Shown here: positions 19,378 through 33,338 of the stretch, piece after piece
Layout: each line of letters opens with the position of its first letter
How positions within the stretch are numbered: the stretch's first letter is position 1
NCBI RefSeq assembly: GCF_014191375.1
Contig: NZ_JACHWN010000005.1
Coordinates: forward strand, 124,001 to 188,000
DNA length: 64,000 nt
Origin: Mesorhizobium sp. RMAD-H1
Lineage (GTDB): Bacteria; Pseudomonadota; Alphaproteobacteria; Rhizobiales; Rhizobiaceae
Reading direction: 5' to 3'
Program-made: the position numbers and the translations under genes
Notes under the pieces: model-generated
Databases searched by the model: none
The model's input: only the letters and a program-made list of their open reading frames with translations
Told to the model about the DNA's origin: nothing

Positions 19378-20105
19378 CACACCTTCGCCGCAAGCACGGC
19401 CTCCGCTTCACCGATGGCATCGGGCGTGCCGACGGTGAGCCACAGGCCATCCATCTGCATGCCATAAAGCCGGCTCTCCGCAATCGCGCGGTCAAAATAG
19501 CGGTTGAGCGATTCCGGCCCACCGGAGGCGTTCGCGAAGATACGGGGATGGATGATGGCCGCACCGGCATAGATGAAGGCGGAACCGGCGCCGTCACTGA
19601 AGCGGACAAGCCGCCCCTCCCCGTCCATGACGAAATCGCCGCGCCCGGTATGGCCCGTGGCCTGGCCGGGCGCCGCCAGCATGAGGAGAATGTCCATGCG
19701 GCCATCATTCCAGCGAGCGGCGAGGCGACGCAGGTTCGAAGTCGCGCCATCGATCCAGAACGTATCGGCATTGAGGATGAAGAACGGTTCGTCTCCCAGA
19801 GAAGGCAAGGCCCTGACGATGCCGCCCGCCGAATCGAGCAGTTCTTCGCGTTCGTCGGAAATGACGACCCGCGGCGCGGTCCGGCGCTTCAGATGCGCCT
19901 CCATCTTGTCGGCGAGGTGATGCACATTGACCACGGCCAGAGGCACGCCGGCCTCCGCCAGCGCATCCAGGCTCCAATCGATGAGCGGCCTGCCGGCCAC
20001 GGAAACGAGCGGCTTGGGGATGGTGTCGGTGATCGGCCGCATGCGCTTGCCCAGCCCCGCCGCCAGTACCATCGCCCTTTGCGGAACGGATGCGCCAGCC
20101 GTCAT
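19377..20105 (-). CDS. murU: Nucleotidyltransferase, MurU-like (N-acetylmuramate-1-phosphate uridylyltransferase)
   Basis: 242 residues. The NTP-transferase signature MVLAAGLGKRMRPITDTIPKPLVSVAGRPLIDWSLD opens the protein, followed by FFILNADTFWIDG (metal-binding Asp) and DGLWLTVGTPDAIGEAE at the end. It follows a gene whose second half is an AmgK-like sugar kinase. AmgK plus MurU form the recycling shunt that makes UDP-N-acetylmuramate from salvaged N-acetylmuramate and bypasses MurA, which is why I favour MurU over glucose-1-phosphate thymidylyltransferases of similar sequence. Substrate is inferred from context. Confidence 0.8.
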   Translation of the reverse strand: MTAGASVPQRAMVLAAGLGKRMRPITDTIPKPLVSVAGRPLIDWSLDALAEAGVPLAVVNVHHLADKMEAHLKRRTAPRVVISDEREELLDSAGGIVRALPSLGDEPFFILNADTFWIDGATSNLRRLAARWNDGRMDILLMLAAPGQATGHTGRGDFVMDGEGRLVRFSDGAGSAFIYAGAAIIHPRIFANASGGPESLNRYFDRAIAESRLYGMQMDGLWLTVGTPDAIGEAEAVLAAKV

Positions 20106-20131
20106 GTCACCCTCGTCAACCAGAATTTATC

Positions 20132-21670
20132 TCAGGCATGTGCCGCAGCCTGATTCGGAACGTCCAGCAGGCCGTTTTCCTCATACCACATCCGCACGGG
20201 CCGGAGCACCGGGTGAGCGAGTGAACGCAGGAGATAGGCGCGGATGCGCGGCAGGTGCTTCAGATAATAGGGCTTGCCGTCGCGCTGGTCCAACCGGACG
20301 AAGATGCCGAGGATCTTGGAATTGCGCTGGGCCGACATGATGGCATAGGCGGCGCGGAAATTCTCCGCATCGAAATCCCCGCCGATCTTCCGCCTCTCGT
20401 CGCAATAGGCCTGGAAAAGGCGCGCCTCCAGCTCCGGCGCGATCGTCACCCGCGCATCCTGCGCAAGCGAGGCCAGATCGTAGGCGGCGGGACCGATCAT
20501 CGCATCCTGAAAGTCGATGATCCCTATGCGATCATTGCCCTTCGCAGCGGCCTGCCAAAGGATGTTTGGGGAATGGAAATCGCGCAAGGTCAGGCTTTTT
20601 TCCGCCTCGTGCAGATGCTCGAAGACCGCGTCCCATGCCGCCTCGAAGGAAGCCTGGCTCCGATCGTCCAGCACCCTGCCCGTCATCCGCGGCACATACC
20701 AGGCGCTCAGGAGCTCCGCCTCGATCATCATCGCGTCACGGTCGAAATCGGGGATGGTGTGGATGATGCCTTCCGCGACCGGCGTCTGGCGCGGCCAGTC
20801 CGTGCGATGGATATGGGCGAGGAACCGCGCGCAGGCCTCATAGCGCTCGGGGATGGGTCGGCCCGCGGTATCGAGCACGCCATCGCTTCCCATATGCTCG
20901 ATGAGGAGAAGGCCGTTTTCGATATCCTCGGCAAGGATCTCGGGCGCATGGAAGCCCTTTGCCCGCAACAGCCTGTCCATGCCGGTGAAGGCATTGATGT
21001 TCTCGGCCAGATGCGCGATCTGGCGATAGGGCCTGCCGTTCTTGACCGGCGGGTCATAGGGCATCGGCGGCGCGTTCATCAGCAATTCGACGCCATCCGG
21101 CCCGGTCACGGTCTCATAGCCGCGCGGGCTGGCATCGCCCAGGAGATAGCGGCGCTCGGCACCCTGGCGTCCGCTCCTGTCGAGAAAGCGCCGGATGGAC
21201 AGCGACCGCTCCAGCCGCCGGCGCGGCTCGCCTTCCGCCTCTATGACGATCCTGCGCCCCTCCCCTTCGTGGAGAAGCGTCACGGCAAAGGCCGGCGCCG
21301 GTAGATAGCCTTCCGCATGTTCCGGCCATTCGACCAGCGCAACGCCCTCCTCCAGCGCCTCGTCGAGACCGAGCTCATCCAGTTCGGCACCGGAAGACAG
21401 GCGGTAGAGATCGGCGTGAGCGACGGGCAGCCGCAGATCGGGATAGGATTGGACCAAGGTGAAGGTGGGGCTAGGCACGTCAAGCGCGGAATCATTAGCC
21501 AGCGTACGAATGATGGCGCGGGCCAGAGTGGACTTGCCGGCGCCCAGATCGCCCGAAAAAGCCGCCAGATCGCCTCTGGCAAGCGCCAGCGCCAGGTCTT
21601 CGCCGAACCGAATGGTCTCGACTTCATTAGCCAGCAAAATTTCCAGGGCGCTCATCAAAGCAACATTCAT
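20132..21670 (-). CDS. tsaE: Fusion of TsaE ATPase and AmgK-like phosphotransferase
   Basis: 512 residues, two domains. Residues about 8-150 are TsaE, the ATPase needed for the t6A modification of tRNA, with P-loop GDLGAGKSTLAR (40-51), VPSPTFTLVQSY, HADLYRL and VALVEWPEHAEGYLP. Residues about 175-500 are an aminoglycoside-phosphotransferase-type kinase with LTLRDFHSPNILW (catalytic Asp and Asn) and IGIIDFQDAMIGPAAYDLASL (metal-binding Asp), closest to AmgK, the N-acetylmuramate/N-acetylglucosamine anomeric kinase. The fusion is known in alphaproteobacteria. The ATG shares a base with the divL stop (TAATG), so translation is probably coupled. Confidence 0.9.
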   Translation of the reverse strand: MNVALMSALEILLANEVETIRFGEDLALALARGDLAAFSGDLGAGKSTLARAIIRTLANDSALDVPSPTFTLVQSYPDLRLPVAHADLYRLSSGAELDELGLDEALEEGVALVEWPEHAEGYLPAPAFAVTLLHEGEGRRIVIEAEGEPRRRLERSLSIRRFLDRSGRQGAERRYLLGDASPRGYETVTGPDGVELLMNAPPMPYDPPVKNGRPYRQIAHLAENINAFTGMDRLLRAKGFHAPEILAEDIENGLLLIEHMGSDGVLDTAGRPIPERYEACARFLAHIHRTDWPRQTPVAEGIIHTIPDFDRDAMMIEAELLSAWYVPRMTGRVLDDRSQASFEAAWDAVFEHLHEAEKSLTLRDFHSPNILWQAAAKGNDRIGIIDFQDAMIGPAAYDLASLAQDARVTIAPELEARLFQAYCDERRKIGGDFDAENFRAAYAIMSAQRNSKILGIFVRLDQRDGKPYYLKHLPRIRAYLLRSLAHPVLRPVRMWYEENGLLDVPNQAAAHA

Positions 21671-24234
21671 TATTCCGCGGCGGCACGGAACGTGCGGGCC
21701 TCGACGGGGAAGCGGCAGACGACAGTGGTTCCCTTGTTTGCCGCCGTGTGAATCGCGACCGAGCCGCCATGCAACTCGACGAAGCTCTTGACGATGGAAA
21801 GGCCGAGGCCGGCGCCACGGCGACGGCCGCCATTGTTGCGCGGCTGGAAACGCTTGAACACGGTGTCGAGCACGTCTTTCGGCATTCCCGGCCCGTCATC
21901 ATGGACTGAAAAGACGATCTCGTCATCTTCACGCCGGCCTGAAAGCACGATGGTGGAGCCTTCCGGCGCGTAATTGGCGGCGTTGCTCAACAGGTTGAAC
22001 AGCACCTGGCGGACACGGTTGGCATCACCCCGGAAGGAACCGATGCCCGGGGCGAGGTCGATCTGCAGGAAAAGATTGTGCTCGCGCAGGCGGTCGCCGA
22101 TGCGATCGGCAGCGGCGGCCACGGTATCAACGATGGACACCTCGTCGATGTCGAGCTCCATGATGCCGGCGTCGACGGTGGCGAGGTCGAGAATATCGTT
22201 GACGATGGTCAGAAGCACCGAGGAAGACGTGCCGATATGATCGAGATATTCGCGCTGACGCTCGTTCAGCTCGCCGAAGGAGGGCGTCTGCAGGAGTTCG
22301 GTGAAGCCGATGATGTTGGTGAGCGGCGAACGCAGCTCATAGGAGACGTGCTGGACGAAATCGTTCTTGATCTGGTCGGCAAGCTCGAGCGCCTCGTTCT
22401 TGTCCTTGAGCGCCCGCTCGACGCGGACGGTGTCGGTCACGTCGACAAAAGTCAGCATGGTCTGCCCTTGCGGGAGCGGCACCAGCGCATAGGACAGGAT
22501 GGCCCCCGCCGCGAGCTCGGTCTGGCCGGCCTCACCCTCGCGCTTGTCGGCGAAGCCGGTGACGGTCGCCACGAAATTCTCCCATAGCGCCGGATCGGAA
22601 ACGGTTTCGCAGAAAGCGCGGATCGCCGAAATATGCGTCCCCTCGACCGCCAGATTGGGAGGAAGAGACCAGAGCGTGGCGAAAGCCGGGTTGGAAAGAC
22701 GGATCCGGCCATCGGACCCGAACACGGCCACACCTTCCGCCAGATGGTCGAGCGTCTCGCCCTGAACCCGGATCAGCGTGTTGTAACGGCTTTCGAGATC
22801 GAATTTTTCGGTCAGGTTCTCGAATACCCAGGTAACGCCGCCATTGGGATGCGGATTGGCGACGACGCGCAGGATGCGCCCGTCGGGCAGATGCCACCAG
22901 TGCTCCTGCGGATCGACGGCGCGATAGGCCGCAAGCACGGAATCCTTCCAGCGGCGCCATTCCGGCTGCTCCGGCAGTTTGCCTTCGCTGCGCAGCCGGT
23001 CGAGCAGCAGGGCATTGCTCGGACGGGTATCGAGAAATGCCGTATCGAACGCCCAGAGCTTGGCGAAAGCCTGGTTGAAGAACTGCAGCTTCATGTCGGT
23101 ATCGAAAATGGCGACTGCCGTATTGAGTTGGTCAAGCGTTTCGGCATGGCTGCGGACGGTGCGCTGCAACTCCTCGCGCACCTGCTCGATCTCGCTGACA
23201 TTGGCGGCGACGCCGGCGGAGCCCGCGGCACAGGCCACATCAGTCACCTCGAACATATGCCTGTCGCCGCCGATGACGGTGGAGAGACGGTCGTGGAAAC
23301 ACGCCTGCGCTGCCCGTTCGCGCTCGATACGCTGGCGCGCCTGCGTGCCGAAAAGCTCATGGCCCTGCGTCACCACCTCGGCGACGTCCGCCGCGCCGAC
23401 AGCCTTCACATAGGTTTTGTTGACCCAGTCGAGCCGGCCCTGCGCATCGCGGGTCCAGACGGTCATGTCGAGCGCGTCAAGAAGGCCGCGCAATGTGGCG
23501 AGCGCCTCCGAAAGCTGGCGGTTTTCCGTCTTCAGGAAAGCCCGCTCCGCCTGAACGCCTTCAAGGCTGACAAAACGGGCGATCGCATAGCTGCCGGACG
23601 TGCGGCCCTGCACTTCGAGCGGCGTTCCGTTCACCGTCTCGACGATGAGATCAAAGGACTGCGCCCGCTCGCGCAAGGCGGTGACCGCACGCTCGAAGGC
23701 GGTGACGGAATCGGCGCGGAGCCAAAGGCCGAAGGCAAGAAAGCCGGCGCGGTCCTGCGGCGCGCCGCTTGTCCCCGGCAAGGCGCCCACCACTTCGGGT
23801 TTTCTGTCGGTGCCGTCCCAGACGACGATCCGCTGATCCTTGAGATTGAGAAGCGCCTCGCTGCGTTGGGCAGTATGGCTCAAATCGGCAAATTTTGCGC
23901 GCAAAGTCGCGTTTTCCTCGGCGATCTTGCCGCGGTCGCGGATGAGCCAGCCGGCCGAAAGCAGGGCCGCGCCCATGGCGCCCAGGAACATGGCGAACTG
24001 GATGATCTCGAACGCGCCAAGCGAGGCGCCGAAGGGCGTGGAAATCTGAGCCAGAGGTCCGGTGACCTGCGCCGACGCGGCGGTGGCGGAGAACAGGGCG
24101 GAAGCCGCCACGCCGGCCCGCAGGGCCTGCCGCCGCAAGCTCTTTCCCTCAATGAGAGCCAGATAGGTTCCGCGTGTCCTCGCATACGCGGAAATATATT
24201 CCCAAACGCCCCGTGACGGGCACCCGTCTGGCAT
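21670..24234 (-). CDS. divL: DivL-type cell-cycle kinase with Tyr at the phosphoacceptor site
   Basis: 854 residues. Hydrophobic segments near 38-55 and 75-98, then PAS-type sensor regions (about 250-330, 365-475, 490-600), a HisKA-like dimerisation helix and a HATPase domain with N box NLLSNAANYAP (748-758), DDGPGMP (779-785) and GAGLGLSIV (807-815). The H box reads FVQHVSYELRSPLTNI: the canonical His is Tyr632 (codon TAT). This substitution is the hallmark of DivL, which in Caulobacter binds phosphorylated DivK and controls CckA and hence CtrA rather than phosphorylating a partner. First gene of a leftward operon with tsaE/amgK, murU, addB, addA and trxA. The exact start is uncertain. Confidence 0.9.
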   Translation of the reverse strand: MPDGCPSRGVWEYISAYARTRGTYLALIEGKSLRRQALRAGVAASALFSATAASAQVTGPLAQISTPFGASLGAFEIIQFAMFLGAMGAALLSAGWLIRDRGKIAEENATLRAKFADLSHTAQRSEALLNLKDQRIVVWDGTDRKPEVVGALPGTSGAPQDRAGFLAFGLWLRADSVTAFERAVTALRERAQSFDLIVETVNGTPLEVQGRTSGSYAIARFVSLEGVQAERAFLKTENRQLSEALATLRGLLDALDMTVWTRDAQGRLDWVNKTYVKAVGAADVAEVVTQGHELFGTQARQRIERERAAQACFHDRLSTVIGGDRHMFEVTDVACAAGSAGVAANVSEIEQVREELQRTVRSHAETLDQLNTAVAIFDTDMKLQFFNQAFAKLWAFDTAFLDTRPSNALLLDRLRSEGKLPEQPEWRRWKDSVLAAYRAVDPQEHWWHLPDGRILRVVANPHPNGGVTWVFENLTEKFDLESRYNTLIRVQGETLDHLAEGVAVFGSDGRIRLSNPAFATLWSLPPNLAVEGTHISAIRAFCETVSDPALWENFVATVTGFADKREGEAGQTELAAGAILSYALVPLPQGQTMLTFVDVTDTVRVERALKDKNEALELADQIKNDFVQHVSYELRSPLTNIIGFTELLQTPSFGELNERQREYLDHIGTSSSVLLTIVNDILDLATVDAGIMELDIDEVSIVDTVAAAADRIGDRLREHNLFLQIDLAPGIGSFRGDANRVRQVLFNLLSNAANYAPEGSTIVLSGRREDDEIVFSVHDDGPGMPKDVLDTVFKRFQPRNNGGRRRGAGLGLSIVKSFVELHGGSVAIHTAANKGTTVVCRFPVEARTFRAAAE

Positions 24235-24385
24235 ATCCTGTCCTCTCCGCCGCTTGTTCAGTCATCATCACCGACTTTGACCTACGTTCGATCCCCGTCC
24301 GCAGACATGTTCGATCAATGCCGCCGATCCACCTCGAATCACTTCAAAATACCCTCATGGCGAATCGCCGTGAAGCAGGCGCGGG

Positions 24386-24425
24386 GCAAAAATAAATGTC
24401 GGGCGGCTTGTCAACCACCCGACAT
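24386..24425 (-). terminator. Rho-independent terminator of ahcY
   Basis: An 11-bp stem with one G-U pair (arms 24396-24406 and 24415-24425, core ATGTCGGG/CCCGACAT) around an 8-nt loop. On the minus strand it is followed by TTTATTTTTG. It starts about 30 bases past the ahcY stop codon. Confidence 0.88.
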
Positions 24426-24442
24426 CAATATGTAGACTATAA

Positions 24443-24457
24443 TTAAAACGTGGTTAA
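24443..24457. promoter_or_regulatory. CtrA-type full site (TTAA-N7-TTAA)
   Basis: TTAAAACGTGGTTAA matches the full CtrA consensus exactly, with seven bases between the TTAA halves. It overlaps the ahcY stop codon and lies about 210 bases upstream of the divL start, with the ahcY terminator in between. DivL controls CtrA activity in relatives, so feedback on divL is conceivable. A chance match in 64 kb is not negligible. Confidence 0.4.
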
Positions 24458-25854
24458 TACCTGTAGTGCTCGGGCTTGTACGGCCCCTGTGGAGTGACGC
24501 CGATATAGGCCGCCTGTTCCTCCGAAAGCGTGGTCAGTTTGGCGCCGAGCTTGCCCAGATGCAGGCGCGCGACCTTCTCATCGAGGTTTTTGGGCAGGAC
24601 ATAGACCTCGTTCTTGTAGTTTTCACCACGCACGTAGAGCTCGATCTGCGCCAACACCTGGTTGGTGAAGGAGGCGGACATGACGAAGCTCGGATGGCCG
24701 GTGGCGTTGCCGAGATTGAGCAGACGGCCCTCGGAAAGCAGGATCAGCCGCTTGCCATCGGGGAACTCGATCATGTCGACCTGCGGCTTGATGTTGGTCC
24801 ATTTCAGATTGCGCAGCGCGGCGACCTGGATCTCATTGTCGAAATGGCCGATATTGCCGACGATGACCATGTCCTTCATCTTGCGCATATGGTCGAGCGT
24901 TACGACGTCCTTATTGCCGGTCGCCGTGATGATGATGTCGGCCGTCGGCGCGGCCTCGTCGAGCGTGACCACCTCAAAGCCGTCCATCGCCGCCTGCAGG
25001 GCGCAGATCGGGTCCGCTTCCGTGACCTTGACGCGCGCGCCGGCGCCGGCCAGCGACTGGGCCGAGCCCTTGCCGACATCGCCATAACCGCAGACGATGG
25101 CGACCTTGCCGGCCATCATCACATCGGTGCCACGGCGGATGCCGTCGACCAGCGATTCCTTGCAGCCGTATTTATTGTCGAATTTCGACTTGGTGACGCT
25201 GTCATTGACGTTGATGGCGGGGAAGGGCAGGAGCCCCTTCTTCTGCAACTGGTAGAGACGGTTGACGCCGGTGGTCGTTTCTTCCGTCACACCCTTGATC
25301 GCCTCGCGCTGCCTGGTGAAGAAGCCCGGCGTCTCGGCCATGCGCTTCCTGATCTGGGCGAAGAGGACTTCCTCCTCCTCGCTGCCCGGGTTTGAAAGCA
25401 CGTCCTCGCCAGCCTCAGCGCGCGCGCCGATCAGGATATACATGGTGGCATCGCCGCCATCGTCGAGGATCATGTTGGAATATCCGCCGTCCGGCCATTG
25501 GAAAATCCGGTCGGTATAGGTCCAGTATTCCTCCAGCGTCTCGCCCTTGACCGCGAAGACCGGGGTGCCGGCGGCGGCGATGGCGGCGGCGGCGTGATCC
25601 TGCGTCGAGAAGATGTTGCAGGAGGCCCAGCGCACTTCGGCGCCCAGCGCCTGCAGCGTCTCGATCAGCACGGCGGTCTGGATCGTCATGTGCAGCGAGC
25701 CTGAGATGCGCGCGCCCTTGAGCGGCTTGGAGGCGCCAAACTCCTCGCGGGCGGCCATGAGGCCCGGCATTTCGGTCTCGGCGATCTCGATTTCCTTGCG
25801 GCCCCAGTCGGCGAGGCTCATATCCTTGACGATAAAATCGTGTTTCGTGGTCAT
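24454..25854 (-). CDS. ahcY: Adenosylhomocysteinase (S-adenosyl-L-homocysteine hydrolase)
   Basis: NAD-dependent cleavage of S-adenosylhomocysteine to homocysteine and adenosine, relieving product inhibition of methyltransferases. 466 residues, the length of the bacterial form with the extra insert ([23 protein letters not shown]). Conserved blocks: [52 protein letters not shown], the NAD loop [11 protein letters not shown] and C-terminal [10 protein letters not shown]. Start at ATG 25854 with GGAG six bases upstream; an upstream in-frame start at 25875 has no better support. A terminator follows at 24386-24425. Confidence 0.97.
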
Positions 25855-25936
25855 CTCGTGCTCCAATCCGGACAATTCAAATGACGATAGGCAGGCGCAG
25901 GCCGAACGGCACGCAGGCGCGGTTGATCGGCCTTAA

Positions 25937-25957
25937 ATCTGCTTTTGCGTAGCAGAT
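25937..25957 (-). promoter_or_regulatory. Small hairpin in the ahcY leader
   Basis: ATCTGCT (25937-25943) and AGCAGAT (25951-25957) can pair around a TTTGCGT loop in the untranslated stretch upstream of ahcY. A second AT-rich inverted repeat ATAAAGA/TCTTTAT lies at 25981-25996. The core of known SAH or SAM riboswitches was not recognised here. Confidence 0.25.
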
Positions 25958-26014
25958 CGGACACAAACGCACAATGGAATATAAAGAAATCTTTATGCGT
26001 GCATATCGTTGAAG

Positions 26015-26830
26015 TTATCCGATTGCCGGATCAACAACAATCAAAGGCAGTTCTATGCCCAGTTTTTCCAGCATGCCGCGGAAGCCCGCGACCGTATGGG
26101 TTTCGCTTTCCGTCACCAGCGCGAGCGTAAATCCCGACCCGGCTTGCGATGGAGCCAGGGTGGCGACGACGTCATCCGCCGGATCGAGAAACCGCCAGCC
26201 GGGGCGCGCTTTTTCGAAGAAGGACCGCAGCCACGGCAAATGCGTACTCGACAGGGTAAGCGTATCGATGGCCGGATAGGCTGCTGCAATGGAGCTGCAG
26301 AAATCAGCGACCTTATCGGCCGTCGCTTCCGACTGAGACAGGAACGCGCCGCTTTCCACAAGCTTGACCATGGGTGATGCGTTGATGAGCGCGACCTTTT
26401 CCGGAGCGGGTGCGTGCGCGCGCACAAACGCCCTCAGTTCCGCGCTTTCGATCATGGACCGAACACCCAGAACCGCGACTTCGCCGCTTCCGCTCGCCGC
26501 CTGCGCCTCGCGGACCGGTGGGGCCACTCCATGGATGGGCACCTCAATATCGCCTTTCAGCTCATCGAGCACCATGATCGACGGCGCATTGGAAGCCAGA
26601 ACGATCGCTTCGGCCCCGAGCGCGAGGAGATAATCAACGGTGTCGCGCATGATGGCCAGCAATTCACCACGCGACTTGGCCCCGTAAGGAAACCGCGCAC
26701 GGTCGGCAAAATAGATGATATCTCGTCGAGGCTGACGGCGCCGTATCAGGTCAACCAGCGCATAGCTGCCGATCCCCGCGTCGAAAACCGCTACCGGTTC
26801 GGCAAGATCCGCAACAGATGCGGGGTGCAT
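26015..26830 (-). CDS. Glutamate-racemase-like protein with both catalytic cysteines replaced by serine
   Basis: 271 residues with the Asp/Glu racemase fold pattern: VAVFDAGIGSYALVDLIRR at the N-terminus, IYFADRARFPYGAKSRGEL, then AIVLASNAPSIMVLDEL and TLTLSSTHLPWL. In MurI the last two motifs read ACNTAS and GCTHYP and supply the two catalytic Cys. Here they are Ser80 (TCC) and Ser195 (AGT). Asp17, Asn81, Thr196 and His197 remain; the Ser of the DSG motif is Ala18. Ordinary two-base racemisation is therefore unlikely; a different reaction, a ligand-binding role or a gyrase-inhibitor-like function are alternatives. It starts one base after the HPr stop, so it belongs to the manX-ptsH transcript. 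Confidence 0.8.
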   Translation of the reverse strand: MHPASVADLAEPVAVFDAGIGSYALVDLIRRRQPRRDIIYFADRARFPYGAKSRGELLAIMRDTVDYLLALGAEAIVLASNAPSIMVLDELKGDIEVPIHGVAPPVREAQAASGSGEVAVLGVRSMIESAELRAFVRAHAPAPEKVALINASPMVKLVESGAFLSQSEATADKVADFCSSIAAAYPAIDTLTLSSTHLPWLRSFFEKARPGWRFLDPADDVVATLAPSQAGSGFTLALVTESETHTVAGFRGMLEKLGIELPLIVVDPAIG

Positions 26831-26831
26831 A

Positions 26832-27146
26832 TCAGCACTCTTCGCCGAACTTGTTGGCGATCAGCTCCTGCAGGGCGTCGAGAACCGCTTCCGCCTGGAC
26901 GCCCGATGCGCTGACCTCGATGCAGCAGCCGGGGGAGGCAGCCAGCATCATCAATCCCATGATGGAGGTGCCGCCGACGATGACGCCGTCCTTTTCCACC
27001 CGGACATGGGCATCGAAACTGTCGACGAGCTGAACGAACTTCGCCGATGCGCGCGCGTGCAGGCCGCGCTTGTTGAGGATCTCGAAGGAGCGCCTGAGGG
27101 CTTTCGCCTCGTCATAGGTTCCGGTTGCAGCATTTGTAATATGCAT
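26832..27146 (-). CDS. ptsH: HPr-family phosphocarrier protein (PTS/Ntr)
   Basis: 104 residues with a short N-terminal extension. The phosphorylated His is His30 in NKRGLHARASAKFVQL, and the HprK target Ser is Ser61 in GGTSIMGLMML; both are intact. In rhizobia this HPr belongs to the regulatory PTS and does not serve sugar import. Six bases follow the EIIA gene upstream, and the MurI-like gene starts one base downstream. Confidence 0.93.
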   Translation of the reverse strand: MHITNAATGTYDEAKALRRSFEILNKRGLHARASAKFVQLVDSFDAHVRVEKDGVIVGGTSIMGLMMLAASPGCCIEVSASGVQAEAVLDALQELIANKFGEEC

Positions 27147-27152
27147 GGCCGG

Positions 27153-27554
27153 CTATTTCCCCGTCAGGACCTGGCTTGCAACATTGATATATTTGCGGCC
27201 GGCCTCCTGCGCCTCGCGGAGAGCCGCCTGCATGTCGCCGGCGATGCGGACGCTGGAAAGCTTGATGAGCATCGGCAGATTGACGCCGGCGATCACCTCG
27301 ACCGTGCCGGGCTTCATCACCGAAATCGCCAGGTTGGACGGAGTGCCCCCGAACATGTCGGTCAGGATGATGACACCCTGGCCTTCATCGGCGCGACCTA
27401 TGGCATCGACGATGTCGCGGCGACGCTGTTCCATATCGTCTTCCGCGCCGATGCAGACGGTCTCGAAATTCTCCTGGGGACCGACAACATGCTCGACTGC
27501 ATGATGAAACTCTTCGGCCAGCCTTCCGTGCGTCACAAGCACGAGTCCGATCAT
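27153..27554 (-). CDS. manX: PTS EIIA component of the mannose family
   Basis: A 133-residue EIIA(Man)-type domain. The phospho-acceptor is His9 in MIGLVLVTHGRLAEEFHHAVEHVVG; DMFGGTPSNLAI is the family's active-site loop. No EIIB/EIIC genes are adjacent, consistent with a regulatory PTS that takes phosphate from HPr. Start at ATG 27554 behind GGGAG; the frame also runs ten codons further upstream. A 249-base gap separates it from hprK, enough for its own promoter. Confidence 0.92.
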   Translation of the reverse strand: MIGLVLVTHGRLAEEFHHAVEHVVGPQENFETVCIGAEDDMEQRRRDIVDAIGRADEGQGVIILTDMFGGTPSNLAISVMKPGTVEVIAGVNLPMLIKLSSVRIAGDMQAALREAQEAGRKYINVASQVLTGK

Positions 27555-27803
27555 TCTCAAACTGCTCCCGTCATGCGCTTGCACCCACCCACATGAAAGA
27601 CATCAACCCGCAAGCGCCTGTGGCCACCGGATATCACCCATCTCCGGCAGGTTGCACATCTTGACAGCCGGAAATGCGATATCAAGTGAAAAATCTCGCA
27701 CTTGCCTTGATTTAGCCGATATGCCGCAGCGCAGCAACACGAGGGTCAATTTACGAGGTTTTAACCTTAATCACCGGAGGCCGGCACCCGTTCTCCGCGG
27801 TTT

Positions 27804-28286
27804 TCAGGGGATTTCGGGCGGCCAGGGCGGCATGAAAAGCGCCGCCTCCACCGCACGGCAGGCATGGAGCGATTCGCCCTGTCCGGGCGCCAGGGAGGGC
27901 AACGTGAGCAACGGGAGGGTAATGCCGCAGAGAATGCGGCGCGCGCCATCGGGATAACGCACCGCCTCCCCGGCGGCGACCAGATCGACCAGAAGATGAA
28001 TGACGGCCGCCTTCTCGAAGGCCGTGCCGAACAGGCCTGCGCCGCGCACCTCGACACCGCCCGCGAGCGTCCCGGGCGCGGATGCCAGAAGCCTGCCATT
28101 TGCCACGCGCAGGATGGTGCGGTCGTCCGAGACCAGCGCGGCGAAGCGGCCTGCGGCGCGCTGCGCGGCGATCAGCGCGAGCGCCAGCGCGGACTTGCCA
28201 GCGCCCGACGCACCGGTGATCAGAACACCGCGGTCGGCGACCAGGAGCGATGTGGCATGGATGGTCTCGCCGGCAGGATCAGGCAT
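27804..28286 (-). CDS. hprK: HPr kinase/phosphorylase, short alphaproteobacterial form
   Basis: 160 residues, kinase domain only; the N-terminal domain of Firmicute HprK is absent, as is usual in alphaproteobacteria. P-loop GVLITGASGAGKSALALALI near residues 21-40, then LVSDDRTIL and VEVRGAGLFGTAF. It phosphorylates the regulatory Ser of HPr. The ATG shares one base with the chvG stop (TGATG), so expression follows chvI-chvG. Confidence 0.9.
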   Translation of the reverse strand: MPDPAGETIHATSLLVADRGVLITGASGAGKSALALALIAAQRAAGRFAALVSDDRTILRVANGRLLASAPGTLAGGVEVRGAGLFGTAFEKAAVIHLLVDLVAAGEAVRYPDGARRILCGITLPLLTLPSLAPGQGESLHACRAVEAALFMPPWPPEIP

Positions 28287-30100
28287 CACGACTCGGCCGG
28301 GAGATCGACGATGAACCGCGCACCCAGATAATGATCGGGGGAGGCGGCACCTGGCGACGCAGGATCGACGATGTTTTCCGCCGTCAGCGTGCCGCCATGC
28401 GCCTCGACGATCTGCCGGCTGATCGAGAGGCCGAGGCCGGAATTCTGGCCGAAAGCTTCAGCCGACGGCCTGTCGGTATAGAAGCGCTCGAAAATGCGCT
28501 CGATATTCTCCGCGCCAATGCCGGGGCCGTTGTCCTCGACAAGGATGCGGATCCGGTTGCCGGAATAATTGAGGGTCACGGTGATCAGCCCCGTATCGTC
28601 AGGCACGAAGGAGCGGGCGTTCTCGATGAGGTTCGAGACGACCTGGCTCAACCGCAGATCATGACCGGAAACGAAGAAGCCCTTGCGCCCGGGCGGCAGC
28701 TTGCCGACCTTCAGCTCGATCTTCGTTCCGGACTTGTTGCGCTGCACCTCCTGCGCCGCGGCGACGAGATTGGTCAGCAGCGCCTTGATATCGACCCTTT
28801 CCGACTGCTCGCGCGCCAGCTCCGCATCCAGACGCGAAGCGTCTGAAATATCGGTGATGAGCCGGTCGAGGCGGCGCACATCGTGCTGGATGATGTCGAG
28901 CAGGCGCTTGCGCGATTCTTCCGTCTTGGCGAGCGGCAGCGTCTCGACGGCGCTTCTGAGCGAGGTCAGCGGGTTCTTCAGCTCGTGGCTGACATCGGCG
29001 GCGAAGCTCTCGATCGCATCGATGCGCGCATAGAGCGCGTTGGTCATGGCACGGATCGAAGCGGAGAGATGGCCGACCTCGTCCTGCCGGTCGGAGAAAT
29101 CCGGTATCTCCACACGGCTCTTGACGCCATAGCGGACGCGGTCCGCGGCGGCCGACAGCCGGCGCAGCGGATTGGCGATGGTGGATGCGAGGAACAGCGA
29201 CAGGATGACCATGACCACGGAAACGACCGCGAAGACGCGGAAGATGGCGTGACGCTCGCCCTGCACGATCTTGTCGATATCACCGCCCTGGGTCGAGAGC
29301 AGCAGCACGCCGAGCACCGCACGGAAGCGCTGGACGGGGACGGCGACGGAGACGACCAGCTCGCCCTGTTCGTTGCGGCGCTGCGCCGTGGCGGGAGAGC
29401 CGGTCAGCGCCTTGACGACCTCCGGCAGGGCCGAGCCGTTGCCGCCAGGCTGCTCCTGATCGAGCGGCAGGCTCCCGGTCTGGTAGAAATGCGAGATCCA
29501 GTCGATGAAACGTTCGACCAGTCCGCGCTCCTCGGTTTCGATCGGCGGCAGCTCGTAGCGCAGCACCTGCCCGTGCGAATAGGAATAGAGGCGGCTTGAA
29601 TCGAGCAGCAGATTGGCATCGCGGTCATAGATGCGGGCGCGCGTGCTGGTCGGCGAGATCAGCCGCCGCAGCAGGGGCGCCACCCGCTCCGGATTGATCG
29701 GGAACTCCCAGTTTTCGGGCGAATCGGGGGAGGGGGTTATGCTCTGGCCGGCCTGCAGCTCGAGCAGCTTTTCCGGATCGATGGCGATAGAGTTGGTATC
29801 GACCGTCGCCGACGCGGCGATGGCGCCGGCAATGATCTCGCCCTGGGTCATCAGGCTCTCGATCTTGGCGCCGACCAGCTCATCGCGGAACTGGTTCAAA
29901 TACATGATGCCGGAGACGAGCACCGCCAGCGCCGCCAGATTGAGGAACAGGATGCGGCGGGTAAGGCTGGAGAAGACATAATGGCCGAGCAGACGGCGCG
30001 CCGGCGAGAACAGGCGGCGCATCAGAAGCGAGCGCTGCCGGCGCGCGCGACGTTCCCTGCTTACGCCTGTGACGGCACTGTTCTCGGCTTCTGCCACCAT
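28286..30100 (-). CDS. chvG: Two-component sensor kinase ChvG/ExoS
   Basis: 604 residues. Membrane segments near 50-68 and 286-306 enclose a periplasmic sensor domain of about 215 residues. A HAMP region follows, then the H box FAADVSHELKNPLTSL (His372), N box SNLIENARSF, G boxes EDNGPGIG and NSGLGLSISRQIVEAHGG. In Agrobacterium, Sinorhizobium and Brucella (BvrS) this kinase responds to acidity and envelope state and controls exopolysaccharide, flagella and host interaction. Its gene follows chvI and overlaps hprK. Confidence 0.95.
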   Translation of the reverse strand: MVAEAENSAVTGVSRERRARRQRSLLMRRLFSPARRLLGHYVFSSLTRRILFLNLAALAVLVSGIMYLNQFRDELVGAKIESLMTQGEIIAGAIAASATVDTNSIAIDPEKLLELQAGQSITPSPDSPENWEFPINPERVAPLLRRLISPTSTRARIYDRDANLLLDSSRLYSYSHGQVLRYELPPIETEERGLVERFIDWISHFYQTGSLPLDQEQPGGNGSALPEVVKALTGSPATAQRRNEQGELVVSVAVPVQRFRAVLGVLLLSTQGGDIDKIVQGERHAIFRVFAVVSVVMVILSLFLASTIANPLRRLSAAADRVRYGVKSRVEIPDFSDRQDEVGHLSASIRAMTNALYARIDAIESFAADVSHELKNPLTSLRSAVETLPLAKTEESRKRLLDIIQHDVRRLDRLITDISDASRLDAELAREQSERVDIKALLTNLVAAAQEVQRNKSGTKIELKVGKLPPGRKGFFVSGHDLRLSQVVSNLIENARSFVPDDTGLITVTLNYSGNRIRILVEDNGPGIGAENIERIFERFYTDRPSAEAFGQNSGLGLSISRQIVEAHGGTLTAENIVDPASPGAASPDHYLGARFIVDLPAES

Positions 30101-30147
30101 AATGCGGATCGTGATTCCTGTTCAGCCCCCGCCCTGAGGCAAGGCGA

Positions 30148-30849
30148 TCACGCCTCGCGGAAGCGGTATCCAACCCCGTAGAGCGTCTCGATCATCTCGA
30201 AGCTGTCGTCAACCGCCTTGAACTTCTTGCGAAGGCGCTTGATGTGGCTATCGATGGTGCGATCGTCAACATATACCTGCTCATCATAAGCCGCATCCAT
30301 CAGCGCGTCACGGCTTTTCACGACGCCGGGGCGCTGTGCCAGGGAATGCAGGATGAGGAATTCGGTAACCGTCAGCGTCACCGGCTCGCCCTTCCAGGTG
30401 CATGTATGACGCTCCTGGTCCATGACCAATTGGCCGCGCTCCAGCGATTTCGATTGCTGGCCGGTCGGCTTCACCGTGCCGTCGCGGGCCGCCACGCGGC
30501 GCAGCACCGCCTTGACGCGCTCCACGAGAAGCCGCTGCGAGAACGGCTTGGTGATGAAATCGTCGGCGCCCATCTTCAACCCGAAGAGCTCATCGATCTC
30601 GTCGTCCTTGGAGGTGAGAAAAATGACGGGCAGATCGGATTTCTGGCGCAGGCGGCGCAAAAGCTCCATCCCGTCCATGCGCGGCATCTTGATATCGAAG
30701 ATGGCGAGATTGGGCGGACGGGCCATCAGGCCGTCAAGCGCCGAAGCACCGTCGGTATATGTCTCAACACGATAGCCTTCCGATTCCAGCGCGATGGAAA
30801 CCGAGGTCAGAATGTTGCGATCGTCATCAACGAGCGCAATCGTCTGCAT
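30148..30849 (-). CDS. chvI: Two-component response regulator ChvI
   Basis: OmpR-family regulator of about 233 residues from [12 protein letters not shown]. The receiver domain has the acidic pair Asp8-Asp10, the phosphorylated Asp52 in [12 protein letters not shown] and the Lys of LTSKDDE; the winged-helix domain ends with [14 protein letters not shown] and GVGYRFREA. Two in-frame ATGs each have a ribosome site (30849 with GGGAG, 30867 with AGGAGAGG); the former matches known ChvI N-termini. It is divergent from pckA, which in Agrobacterium is in the same locus and under ChvI influence. Confidence 0.95.
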
Positions 30850-31192
30850 TGCTGGTATCTCCCTCATGCGGCGCCTCTCCTTAAACGTCAAATCAGTCGG
30901 CAACAGGATTTCAGTCGACGCGCTTTTGCAGGACAAATTAGGTACAAAATGTGGCATAGCACTTTTCCTGCCCGGAAAACAAATGTTCCGGCCATCAACA
31001 CGCCAGAGTTGTCAAACCCGGACATCTTCCCGCTATTGGCATTTTTAAACGATTTAATTTTTTTTGATAATTTTTAAATCGATTAATCGTTTGAAATTAT
31101 TCGGCTTTTCTGTTGTCAAAAATTCGGGCTGTCCTTTCCTGGTTCCTGGAGGGAAGCCTTTATCAAATTTTGACCAGATTGGCGGAGAGACA
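30850..31192. promoter_or_regulatory. Divergent chvI / pckA control region
   Basis: 343 bases without a gene, markedly AT-rich between about 31040 and 31100. Visible symmetry: CCGGAA (30972-30977) / TTCCGG (30986-30991); AAACGATT (31047-31054) / AATCGTTT (31085-31092); and the perfect palindrome CGATTAATCG at 31080-31089. The GGCGGAGAG ribosome site of pckA lies at about 31181-31189. The palindromes are plausible operators, but no known ChvI site could be matched with confidence. Confidence 0.5.
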
Positions 31193-32803
31193 ATGAAAGA
31201 GACCGGCATCCGCAATGCGGCCGCTTCCATCACAGCTTCAGGACTGAAGGATATCTCCGCAGTCTTTTATAATCTCGGACCGGCAGAGCTTTACGAGCAT
31301 TCGATCCGGCGCGGCGAGGCGGAACTGACCGCTCATGGCGCGCTGGCCGCCCGCACCGGCCAGCATACGGGCCGCTCGGCAAAGGACAAGTTCATCGTCC
31401 GCGACGCCGACACCGACCCACATATCTGGTGGTACAACAACAAGGCGATGAGCCGGGAGGCCTTCGACGCGCTGCACGCCGATTTCATCGAGCACGCCCG
31501 GGGCAAGGAGCTCTTCGTGCAGGACCTGATCGGCGGGGCGGATGCAGATTACAGCCTGCGCGCCCGCGTCATCACCGAATATGCTTGGCATTCCCTCTTC
31601 ATCCGCAATCTGCTGATCCGCCCCGATGCGGGCGCTCTCGCCTCCTTCGTGCCTGACATGACGATCATCGACCTGCCGTCCTTCCGCGCCGATCCGGCGC
31701 GCCATGGCTGCCGCAGCGAGACGGTGATCGCGGTCGACCTCACCCGGATGATCGTGCTGATCGGCGGAACCTCCTATGCGGGCGAAATGAAGAAATCCGT
31801 CTTCACCGCGCTCAACTACATCCTGCCGCCCAAGGGCGTGATGCCGATGCACTGCTCCGCGAACCAGGGAGCGGACGGCGACACGGCGGTGTTCTTCGGC
31901 CTGTCGGGCACCGGCAAGACGACGCTTTCCGCCGATCCCAGGCGCACGCTGATCGGCGACGACGAGCATGGCTGGGGCGCGCACGGCGTCTTCAACTTCG
32001 AAGGCGGCTGCTACGCCAAGACCATCCGGCTTTCGGCGGAAGCGGAGCCGGAAATCTTCGCCACGACCAGGCGTTTCGGCACGGTGCTGGAAAATGTCGT
32101 GCTCGATCAGAACCGCGTGCCGGACTTCGATGATGGATCGCTCACGGAGAACACGCGCTGCGCCTATCCGCTCGATTTCATCCCCAATGCCAGCGCTACC
32201 GGCAAGGCGGGGCAGCCCAAGAACATCATCATGCTGACGGCGGATGCCTTCGGCGTTCTGCCGCCGATCGCCCGACTGACGCCGGCGCAGGCGATGTATC
32301 ACTTCCTCTCCGGCTATACCGCCAAGGTGGCGGGCACGGAGAAGGGCGTCACCGAACCGGAAGCGACGTTCTCGACCTGCTTCGGCGCGCCTTTCATGCC
32401 GCGCCATCCCAGCGAATACGGCAATCTCCTGCGCCGGCTCATCGCCGAGCACGGTGTCGATTGCTGGCTGGTCAATACCGGCTGGACGGGCGGCGCCTAT
32501 GGCACGGGCAGCCGGATGCCAATCAAGGCGACGCGCGCGCTGCTGACCGCCGCGCTCGACGGCTCCCTGAAGAACGCGGCGTTCCGCACCGATCCGAATT
32601 TCGGCTTCGCAGTGCCGGTGGCGGTACCCGGCGTCGATGCGGCCATTCTCGATCCACGCTCAACCTGGACCGACAAGACCGCCTATGACGCACAGGCGAC
32701 GAAGCTGGTCCGGATGTTCGTCGCCAATTTCGAGAAGTTCGAAAGCCATGTGGACGGCGAGGTGAGGGGAGCGGCCCCCGGCCTGGCGCTCGCCGCCGAG
32801 TGA
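31193..32803 (+). CDS. pckA: Phosphoenolpyruvate carboxykinase (ATP)
   Basis: Converts oxaloacetate to phosphoenolpyruvate for gluconeogenesis. 536 residues from ATG 31193, behind GGAGAG. Signature blocks: [16 protein letters not shown] (substrate arginine), [20 protein letters not shown]-loop [14 protein letters not shown] (235-248), IGDDEHGWG (metal-binding Asp) and [15 protein letters not shown] near the end. Divergent from chvI and followed by its own terminator, so it is monocistronic. Confidence 0.97.
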
Positions 32804-32829
32804 TATTCTGCTAGAGGGGAGGAGGAAGG

Positions 32830-32860
32830 ACCCGGCGGGAAACCGCCGGGTCTTTGTGTT
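32830..32860 (+). terminator. Rho-independent terminator of pckA
   Basis: A 9-bp stem ACCCGGCGG (32830-32838) / CCGCCGGGT (32843-32851) with a GAAA tetraloop and a TCTTTGTGTTT tail, 27 bases after the stop codon. Confidence 0.9.
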
Positions 32861-32900
32861 TGCGTTAGAATATGAGGCCCGATCTGCTATATCTCCCTTA

Positions 32901-33338
32901 ATGGAACAGAACCGCCGCCAGATTCGCATCAACCAGCGCATATTGGTCCACGAGGATGACCTCGAGGAGACGTTCATCCGCGCGGCGGGGCCGGGTGGGC
33001 AGAACGTCAACAAGGTCTCGACCGCGGTGCAATTGCGGTTCAGGGCAGCGCGGGCCGGATTGCCCGAGGATGTCCTGCAGCGCCTCGTCAAGCTGGCAGG
33101 CCAGCGCGCCACCAAGGAGGGCGACATACTCATCGAGGCGAGCCGCTACCGCACGCAGGAGCGCAACCGCGAGGACGCGCGGGAGCGGCTCATCGCCCTG
33201 ATCACCAGGGCGGCCGAGCCGCCGCCGCCGCCGCGCAAGAAGACCAGGCCTTCGAAAGGCGCCGTCGAAAGGCGGCTCAAGGAAAAAGCCGGCCGTTCCG
33301 GCATCAAGAAGATGCGCGGGCGGGTTACAGGCGATTAA
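32901..33338 (+). CDS. arfB: Alternative ribosome-rescue factor ArfB (YaeJ type)
   Basis: 145 residues. Peptidyl-tRNA hydrolase that frees ribosomes stalled without a stop codon. The catalytic GGQ (32-34) lies in RAAGPGGQNVNKVSTAVQL, and the basic C-terminal tail that enters the mRNA channel is present (PRKKTRPSKGAVERRLKEKAGRSGIKKMRG). The length rules out a full release factor. It lies just after the pckA terminator; no clear ribosome site precedes the ATG. Confidence 0.92.
   Translation: MEQNRRQIRINQRILVHEDDLEETFIRAAGPGGQNVNKVSTAVQLRFRAARAGLPEDVLQRLVKLAGQRATKEGDILIEASRYRTQERNREDARERLIALITRAAEPPPPPRKKTRPSKGAVERRLKEKAGRSGIKKMRGRVTGD

What the first reader, a model, noticed from the sequence alone, without database searches (positions are those of the whole stretch)
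26015..26830. MurI-like protein with both catalytic Cys replaced by Ser, encoded one base after HPr
The racemase fold motifs are intact (VFDAGIGS, FADRARFPYG, SNAPS, SSTHLPW), but the two catalytic Cys positions are Ser80 and Ser195. Two independent identical substitutions with the surrounding Asn, Thr and His kept suggest a conserved, repurposed active site rather than decay. Its position in the manX-ptsH transcript of the regulatory PTS, where rhizobia as I remember them have ahcY directly after ptsH, suggests a signalling or metabolite-sensing role.
Basis: partly seen in the sequence, partly recalled or inferred. Interest (0 to 1): 0.75.

Follow-up and report, generated by a model that had tools for sequence, protein, structure and literature searches.

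The report
Conserved glutamate-racemase lookalike lacking catalytic cysteines
A bacterial gene beside a regulatory phosphate-relay gene encodes a protein shaped like a cell-wall enzyme but without the two sulphur residues that enzyme works with, and the same altered protein is kept in scattered, distantly related bacteria, so it very probably has a different, still unknown job.

Summary
Confirmed: the minus-strand ORF 26015-26830 (271 aa) starts one base after the ptsH stop and has a MurI fold, with Ser80 and Ser195 in place of both catalytic cysteines. A normal Cys/Cys murI lies elsewhere in the genome.

Orthologues form a clade apart from ordinary murI, scattered over Alphaproteobacteria, another proteobacterial class and one Fusobacterium record. 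Ser195 is kept in 47 of 47 distinct members, Ser80 in 45 of 47 (two Ala); dN/dS is 0.08-0.15.

New here: four polar residues recalled as holding glutamate (S11, T76, T118, T121, B. subtilis numbering) are also replaced by Ala/Val/Met/Leu throughout the clade, while Asp10, Asn75, Glu153, Thr186 and His187 stay. The ligand is therefore probably not glutamate.

The PTS-signalling idea is weak: 21 of 55 examined genomes, in three genera, have the gene beside ptsH. Elsewhere the neighbours differ and are sometimes mobile DNA.

Best reading: a horizontally spread, stand-alone, non-racemase member of the MurI fold, acting on an unknown, less polar metabolite. Function unproven; my searches of the held literature listed no description of it.

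The parts
26015..26830 (-). Cys-less MurI-fold protein gene, 271 aa (Ser80/Ser195 at the catalytic Cys positions)
   Evidence: ORF; Pfam Asp_Glu_race 36.7 bits over gathering 31; below the TIGR00067 cut-off, 103.1 against 146.65; MurI fold in an AF2 model, pLDDT 90.3
26582..26596 (-). first active-site motif A79-S80-N81-A82-P83 (MurI ACNTA); codon of Ser80 TCC
   Evidence: alignments; codon; coordinates computed from the ORF start and checked on the sequence
26240..26254 (-). second active-site motif L193-S194-S195-T196-H197 (MurI LGCTH); codon of Ser195 AGT
   Evidence: alignments; codon; coordinates computed from the ORF start
26832..27146 (-). ptsH (HPr/NPr), immediately upstream, one base away
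   Evidence: PTS-HPr 88.5 bits
27153..27584 (-). manX/ptsM, EIIA of the mannose family
   Evidence: EIIA-man 105.7 bits
27804..28289 (-). hprK, short HPr kinase
   Evidence: Hpr_kinase_C 44.9 bits
24454..25875 (-). ahcY, S-adenosylhomocysteine hydrolase, downstream

Best explanation
The gene encodes a member of a distinct clade of MurI-fold proteins that gave up amino-acid racemisation. Both thiols of the two-base mechanism were replaced, probably in the clade's ancestor, by Ser (two known members have Ala at the first site), and the four polar side chains that I recall as holding glutamate were replaced by Ala/Val/Met/Leu. The helper acids and bases of the old site (Asp17, Asn81, Glu159, Thr196, His197) were kept, and new invariant residues were added (Ser22, Arg44, Lys52, Ser152, Ser194, Glu241; Trp200 in nearly all). 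The likeliest job is to bind a small metabolite that is less polar than glutamate in the cleft between the two lobes, and to act on it with one-sided chemistry around Ser195-His197-Glu159 (hydrolysis, elimination or tautomerisation). It works as a stand-alone protein whose gene has spread horizontally and lies, in three genera, between ptsH and ahcY, where it is probably read with the regulatory PTS genes. Shown: fold (predicted), loss of both Cys, clade-wide conservation, purifying selection, extra murI, patchy distribution, differing neighbourhoods. Inferred: changed ligand, catalysis rather than pure binding, horizontal transfer in most lineages, co-transcription and translation coupled to ptsH.
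For: Fold: AF2 model mean pLDDT 90.3; ranks 1-48 of the 50 Foldseek hits listed are glutamate racemases. Residues, 47 distinct clade rows (39 below 95% identity to each other) against 44 ordinary murI rows, one of them truncated (a 45th 'other' row is L072, a piece of the broken clade copy of G315): position 18 Ala 47/47 (murI Ser 43/43 with a letter), 80 Ser 45 and Ala 2 (Cys 44/44), 82 Ala 43 and Val 4 (Thr 44/44), 123 Val 46 and Ala 1 (Thr 44/44), 126 Met 29 and Leu 18 (Thr 44/44), 195 Ser 47/47 (Cys 44/44); Asp17, Asn81, Glu159, Thr196 and His197 unvaried in both groups. Ser195 codon AGY in 61 of 61 distinct genes; position 80 TCN in 56 of 58 readable genes, GCC (Ala) in 2, 3 not readable in frame. 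Clade branch support 100/100. dN/dS 0.104-0.150 for the window gene against four relatives, 0.082-0.135 in six pairs among relatives, HPr 0.118-0.182. A second match in the score range of ordinary murI is present in 4 of 4, 14 of 14 and 13 of 13 genomes with a full-length copy; its two Cys were read in the window's own genome and not in most of the others. Patchy: 21/394, 6/29, 3/20, 13 full-length plus 2 broken or partial of 121. Transfer: G005 and G997 copies, from different families, are 89% identical in DNA although 80 aligned residues of their HPr are 71% identical. In OpaE, another member of the superfamily, the engineered double Cys-to-Ser mutant keeps at most 0.3% activity, and a polar-to-hydrophobic pocket change goes with a changed substrate (PMC12661438, passages).
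Against: No ligand, product or phenotype is known. The MurI contact residues S11, T76, T118 and T121 are recalled; two literature searches for them listed no MurI paper that I could check them in. Two members have Ala at position 80, so that Ser is not needed in all. Conservation alone cannot separate an enzyme from a binding protein. No neighbour recurs over the independent contexts strongly enough to suggest a pathway. The second structural aligner was unavailable, so the geometry of the cleft was not measured.
Confidence: 0.55

Rival explanations
1. A non-catalytic sensor of glutamate or another nitrogen metabolite that works with HPr/EIIA of the regulatory PTS.
For: One base from ptsH and in the gene order of the hprK-manX-ptsH cluster; same position in all 16 genomes of genus g17 with a full or broken copy, in two of g87 and in three of the window's genus. 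In B. [quoted passage not shown] In the unlinked G942 the only HPr match is still about 20 kb from the gene on the same contig.
Against: 34 of 55 genomes with the gene have no ptsH in the fetched flank; in eight of them HPr was located, on another contig or at least about 20 kb away. 18 of 35 genomes of g17 match only at the score of ordinary murI and have ptsH and ahcY close together with no remnant. On the tree the ptsH-linked rows need at least two changes, so linkage is not a single-clade mark. The recalled glutamate contacts are lost.
Confidence: 0.13
2. A MurI-fold protein that works by binding another macromolecule, for example DNA gyrase, as some MurI proteins do independently of racemisation.
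For: MurI of E. coli, B. subtilis, M. tuberculosis and M. smegmatis inhibits gyrase, and this appears uncoupled from racemisation (PMC10886550, passages). Stand-alone, mobile distribution fits a self-contained effector.
Against: Much of the conservation lies in the old active-site motifs, which a surface-binding role would not require.
Confidence: 0.1
3. An active racemase or epimerase that uses Ser/Ser (or Ala/Ser) on a substrate with an unusually acidic C-H, or in one direction only.
For: Enzymes with one Cys replaced by Thr exist: EcL-DER and MMP0739 (PMC8142540, passages). Helper acids are kept.
Against: Both thiols are gone; the OpaE double Ser mutant is at or below 0.3% activity; two members have Ala at the first site.
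Confidence: 0.09
4. A decaying murI duplicate with no function.
For: Frames are broken in some copies (G315; G1001 and G1006; G1451, and G1353 in part), and the equivalent place in B. abortus is annotated a pseudogene.
Against: dN/dS 0.08-0.15; invariant motifs across two phyla. G1001 and G1006 have the same contig coordinates as the named assemblies L050 and L051, in which chvG and the histidine-kinase gene are broken as well, which suggests sequencing error there.
Confidence: 0.02

Closest known systems
Glutamate racemase MurI (TIGR00067, PF01177)
   Same: Fold by prediction, Asp10, Asn75, Glu153, Thr186 and His187 equivalents, PYG loop (Tyr in 45 of 47), overall length
   Different: Both catalytic Cys are Ser; S11, T76, T118 and T121 equivalents are non-polar; 103.1 bits against a cut-off of 146.65 for TIGR00067; a second, ordinary-murI-like match in all 31 genomes with a full-length copy that searches list
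EcL-DER and MMP0739 aspartate/glutamate racemases
   Same: Natural members of the superfamily in which a catalytic Cys is replaced (PMC8142540, passages)
   Different: They keep one Cys and have Thr at the other site; this clade keeps none
OpaE and the allantoin/hydantoin racemases
   Same: Substrate change accompanied by a shift from polar to hydrophobic pocket residues (PMC12661438, passages)
   Different: OpaE keeps both Cys; its Ser/Ser form is an engineered, almost inactive mutant
B. abortus BAB1_2098 / BAW_12012, pseudogene in the bvrR operon
   Same: Same place between ptsO (NPr) and ahcY in the gene list (PMC9491525, section 12)
   Different: Annotated as broken and not assigned to a family there; that it is a decayed copy of this gene is inferred from position only, its sequence was not seen

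Membership tests
Glutamate racemase (MurI) | Asp/Glu racemase fold | tested here: met
   PF01177 36.7 bits over 31; Foldseek ranks 1-48 all MurI, TM (query) 0.70-0.81 for the first six; predicted model only
Glutamate racemase (MurI) | Two catalytic Cys, one in each lobe | tested here: not met
   Ser80 and Ser195; clade-wide
Glutamate racemase (MurI) | Curated equivalog score TIGR00067 | tested here: not met
   103.1 bits against 146.65; the other two MurI equivalogs listed are also far below their cut-offs
Glutamate racemase (MurI) | Polar side chains binding the glutamate carboxylates (S11, T76, T118, T121; list recalled) | tested here: not met
   All four replaced in 47 of 47 clade rows, kept in every ordinary murI row with a letter there (43 or 44)
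Glutamate racemase (MurI) | Racemisation of glutamate; supplies D-Glu for the cell wall | not testable with these tools
   A normal Cys/Cys murI is present in the genome, so D-Glu supply should not require this gene
Component of the regulatory PTS (PTS-Ntr) | Conserved linkage with ptsH | tested here: not met
   Adjacent in 21 of 55 genomes; linkage is kept in all copies of g17 and g87 seen, but not outside three genera
Pseudogene | Relaxed selection or disrupted frame | tested here: not met
   dN/dS 0.104-0.150 for the window gene; intact frame
Gyrase-inhibiting MurI | Inhibition of DNA gyrase | not testable with these tools
   Literature only

The most novel reading that the evidence does not exclude
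The clade is a new enzyme family in the racemase fold that swapped two-thiol racemisation for Ser/His/Glu chemistry (a hydrolase, lyase or tautomerase) on a non-polar or aromatic metabolite, carried between phyla as a single mobile gene.
Probability: 0.33. Interest if true: 0.78.

Novelty: new variant of a known kind. Interest (0 to 1): 0.58.

Why it matters
The Asp/Glu racemase superfamily is known for its pair of catalytic cysteines; the natural exceptions met in the passages read here keep one of them. A clade without either, under strong selection and found from Rhizobiales to a Fusobacterium, shows that the fold was very probably given another job. At least one member is annotated 'Asp/Glu racemase', which is probably wrong, and models built on such labels would give the cell a second glutamate racemase that it does not have. 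The clade gives a natural Ser/Ser experiment for the two-base mechanism and a tractable target of unknown function. In the ptsH-linked lineages it also adds an unstudied protein to a regulatory PTS gene cluster.

Tried and rejected
Phage or plasmid gene: a scan of IMG/VR with two peptide patterns found no relative; no PHROGs match at E 0.001. The phage collection gave 22 records, none covering 80% of the query, the best listed at 35% identity; their active-site residues were not read and 12 were not listed. Among records filed as plasmids, a Phyllobacterium zundukense record of 990 kb and a Fusobacterium vincentii record of 2.1 Mb (probably a chromosome) carry clade members; 28 of 58 records were not listed.

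Neighbourhood guilt by association: AMP-binding (acyl-CoA-synthetase-type) genes lie next to the gene in three contexts (L076 FadD, L096 acetyl-CoA synthetase, L173 MFS/acyltransferase/AMP-binding fusion), but with different orientations and different members of the superfamily; a weak lead noticed after the fact. A LysE exporter, glutathione synthetase, PhnH and a PLP enzyme were each seen near one copy, LysE-like proteins by eye near two more, and were not taken further.

Remnants: 18 g17 genomes without the gene (19 places) have no trace of it between ptsH and ahcY at E up to 1, so clean absence there; whether this is loss or non-acquisition is open.

Literature for a known Cys-less family: searches listed none that I recognised (listings only; held open-licence PMC library). 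Searches were related searches. Of papers I saw passages of PMC2937029, PMC8142540, PMC11602996, PMC10886550 and PMC12661438, and passages plus section 12 of PMC9491525.

Rfam found nothing in 20000-33000; promoter and terminator pattern scans gave no more than shuffles.

Gene lists of neighbours are crude ORF picks; the pick missed the gene itself in L175, L178, L179 and L180.

Full report
THE OBSERVATION. The ORF lies on the minus strand at 26015-26830, 271 aa, one base after the ptsH stop. Pfam gives Asp_Glu_race (36.7 bits, gathering 31). The protein matches TIGR00067 glutamate racemase at 103.1 bits, below the curated cut-off of 146.65. Alignment to solved MurI chains puts Ser80 and Ser195 on the two catalytic Cys; an alignment with ten ordinary murI of relatives agrees. 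At E up to 10 the genome holds one other match, a 282-aa protein with the normal ACNTAS and LACTHYP motifs. Two details differ: the Thr of the first motif is Ala82, and the DSG serine is Ala18.

FOLD. An AF2 model from 18 sequences has mean pLDDT 90.3 and pTM 0.87. Ranks 1-48 of the 50 PDB hits listed by Foldseek are glutamate racemases. The best query TM-scores are 0.81 (2jfv, with citrate) and 0.80 (2ohg), against 0.53-0.74 for chains whose titles name bound glutamate. The difference may only reflect an open model.

THE CLADE. A profile of orthologues finds the gene in 21 of 394 genomes of the window's family, the window's own included (6 of 109 genera; one copy, G315, in two pieces). Apart from the window itself it finds one clade match in 297 genomes of the order (G624; the other four hits there are ordinary murI), one in 289 of the class (G942) and two in 398 of the phylum (G942 and G1277). 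Within single families it is patchy: 6 of 29, 3 of 20, 13 full-length plus 2 broken or partial of 121. In genus g17, which matching contig coordinates of named loci show to hold Brucella/Ochrobactrum species, 14 of 35 genomes have a full-length and 2 a broken copy, 18 match only at the score of ordinary murI and one incomplete genome has no match. A Fusobacterium vincentii record carries a 41%-identical Ser/Ser orthologue and Phyllobacterium zundukense one at 53%. A maximum-likelihood tree of 51 rows separates the clade from ordinary murI with support 100/100; it was built before the Fusobacterium, P. zundukense, G1277 and copies were found and does not hold them. In it the ptsH-linked rows do not form one group (at least two changes), and the two divergent f44 copies with Ala at the first site lie next to the main ptsH-linked group (support 96/90).

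CONSERVATION. Residue counts on 92 distinct sequences (47 clade rows, 44 ordinary murI, and one piece of the broken G315 copy) show that the change goes beyond the cysteines. The 47 clade rows reduce to 39 at 95% identity, and many are close relatives, so they are not 47 independent tests. The positions of B. subtilis MurI S11, C74, T76, T118, T121 and C185 are Ala; Ser (45) or Ala (2); Ala or Val; Val or Ala; Met or Leu; and Ser in the clade, while every ordinary murI row with a letter there keeps the original residue. D10, N75, E153, T186 and H187 are unvaried in both groups. The clade has its own invariants: Ser22, Arg44, Lys52, Ser152, Ser194 (47 of 47) and Glu241 (17 of 17). That S11, T76, T118 and T121 hold the substrate's carboxylates, and the numbering, are recalled; only Cys74 and Cys185 were seen in a passage. 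Codons at position 195 are AGY in 61 of 61 distinct genes; at position 80, TCN in 56 of 58 readable genes and GCC in 2, with 3 not readable in frame. This fits one ancestral change at each site by different routes. Pairwise dN/dS is 0.104-0.150 between the window gene and four relatives, and 0.082-0.135 in six pairs among relatives, in the range of HPr (0.118-0.182) and above AhcY (0.067-0.078).

NOT A SECOND RACEMASE FOR THE CELL WALL. Genomes with a full-length copy also have a second match in the score range of ordinary murI: 4 of 4, 14 of 14, 13 of 13; its Cys pair was read in the window's own genome, not in most others. In OpaE, a superfamily member, the engineered C90S/C199S protein retains at most 0.3% activity (PMC12661438, passages). 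Natural exceptions described in a review keep one Cys with Thr at the other site (PMC8142540, passages).

LINKAGE. In eight of the 34, HPr was located: on another contig, far away, or, in G942, about 20 kb away. In the linked set the first possible start lies within a few bases of, or overlaps, the ptsH stop in most, so translational coupling is plausible; co-transcription is an inference here. In B. abortus the operon is co-transcribed across this place, where a pseudogene is annotated (PMC9491525, section 12); that it is a relic of this gene is inferred from position. In 18 g17 genomes without the gene, ptsH and ahcY are 137-605 bp apart with no remnant (19 places). Unlinked copies sit between maf and clpB in Bartonella choladocola and, elsewhere, beside an ABC transporter, FadD, acetyl-CoA synthetase, a transposase or an integrase-type domain. 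The G005 and G997 copies, from different families, are 89% identical in DNA while their HPr proteins are 71% identical over 80 residues, which argues for recent transfer.

INTERPRETATION. Shown: a conserved, Cys-less clade with a predicted MurI fold, additional to murI, patchy in distribution and in differing neighbourhoods. Inferred: it does not racemise amino acids by the known mechanism and does not use glutamate; it binds another, less polar metabolite. I favour an enzyme over a pure binder because acid/base residues and several new charged residues are invariant over two phyla, but this step is the weakest. The PTS link is a property of three genera, not of the protein.

NOVELTY. No described family of this kind turned up in the listings, in a library that holds only open-licence papers. 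I call it a new variant of a known kind: known fold and superfamily, unknown and probably different function.

Noticed in passing
25981-25996: Perfect palindrome ATAAAGAAATCTTTAT between this gene and ahcY, 1 match in the window against 0.03 expected, with the same or a similar sequence visible in the ptsH-ahcY gap of three same-genus genomes. From memory it resembles the SahR/SamR operator of methionine-cycle genes, so ahcY may have its own promoter.
   Followed up: partly
L139 5776-6567 and 6900-8339; L078 2366-3157: Near-identical copies in two families (89% DNA identity), one next to a DDE transposase and near GntR and PhnH genes.
   Followed up: partly
L182 5561-5956 and L176 1578-4046: Copies beside an integrase-type arm DNA-binding domain (L182) and near a SIR2/STAND NTPase gene of the kind seen in defence islands.
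   Followed up: no
L050 and L051: Two named assemblies have broken frames in this gene and also in chvG and the histidine-kinase gene, probably sequencing errors rather than pseudogenes.
   Followed up: no
L082 and L094: The most divergent clade members (genus g177, f44) have Ala instead of Ser at the first site and Leu for Tyr in the PYG loop, and lie directly downstream of a gene that looks by eye like ribose-phosphate pyrophosphokinase.
   Followed up: partly
L134 4976-5950 and 8811-9872: In P. zundukense the gene is tail-to-tail with a PALP-type PLP enzyme and about 2 kb from a ribose-phosphate pyrophosphokinase.
   Followed up: no
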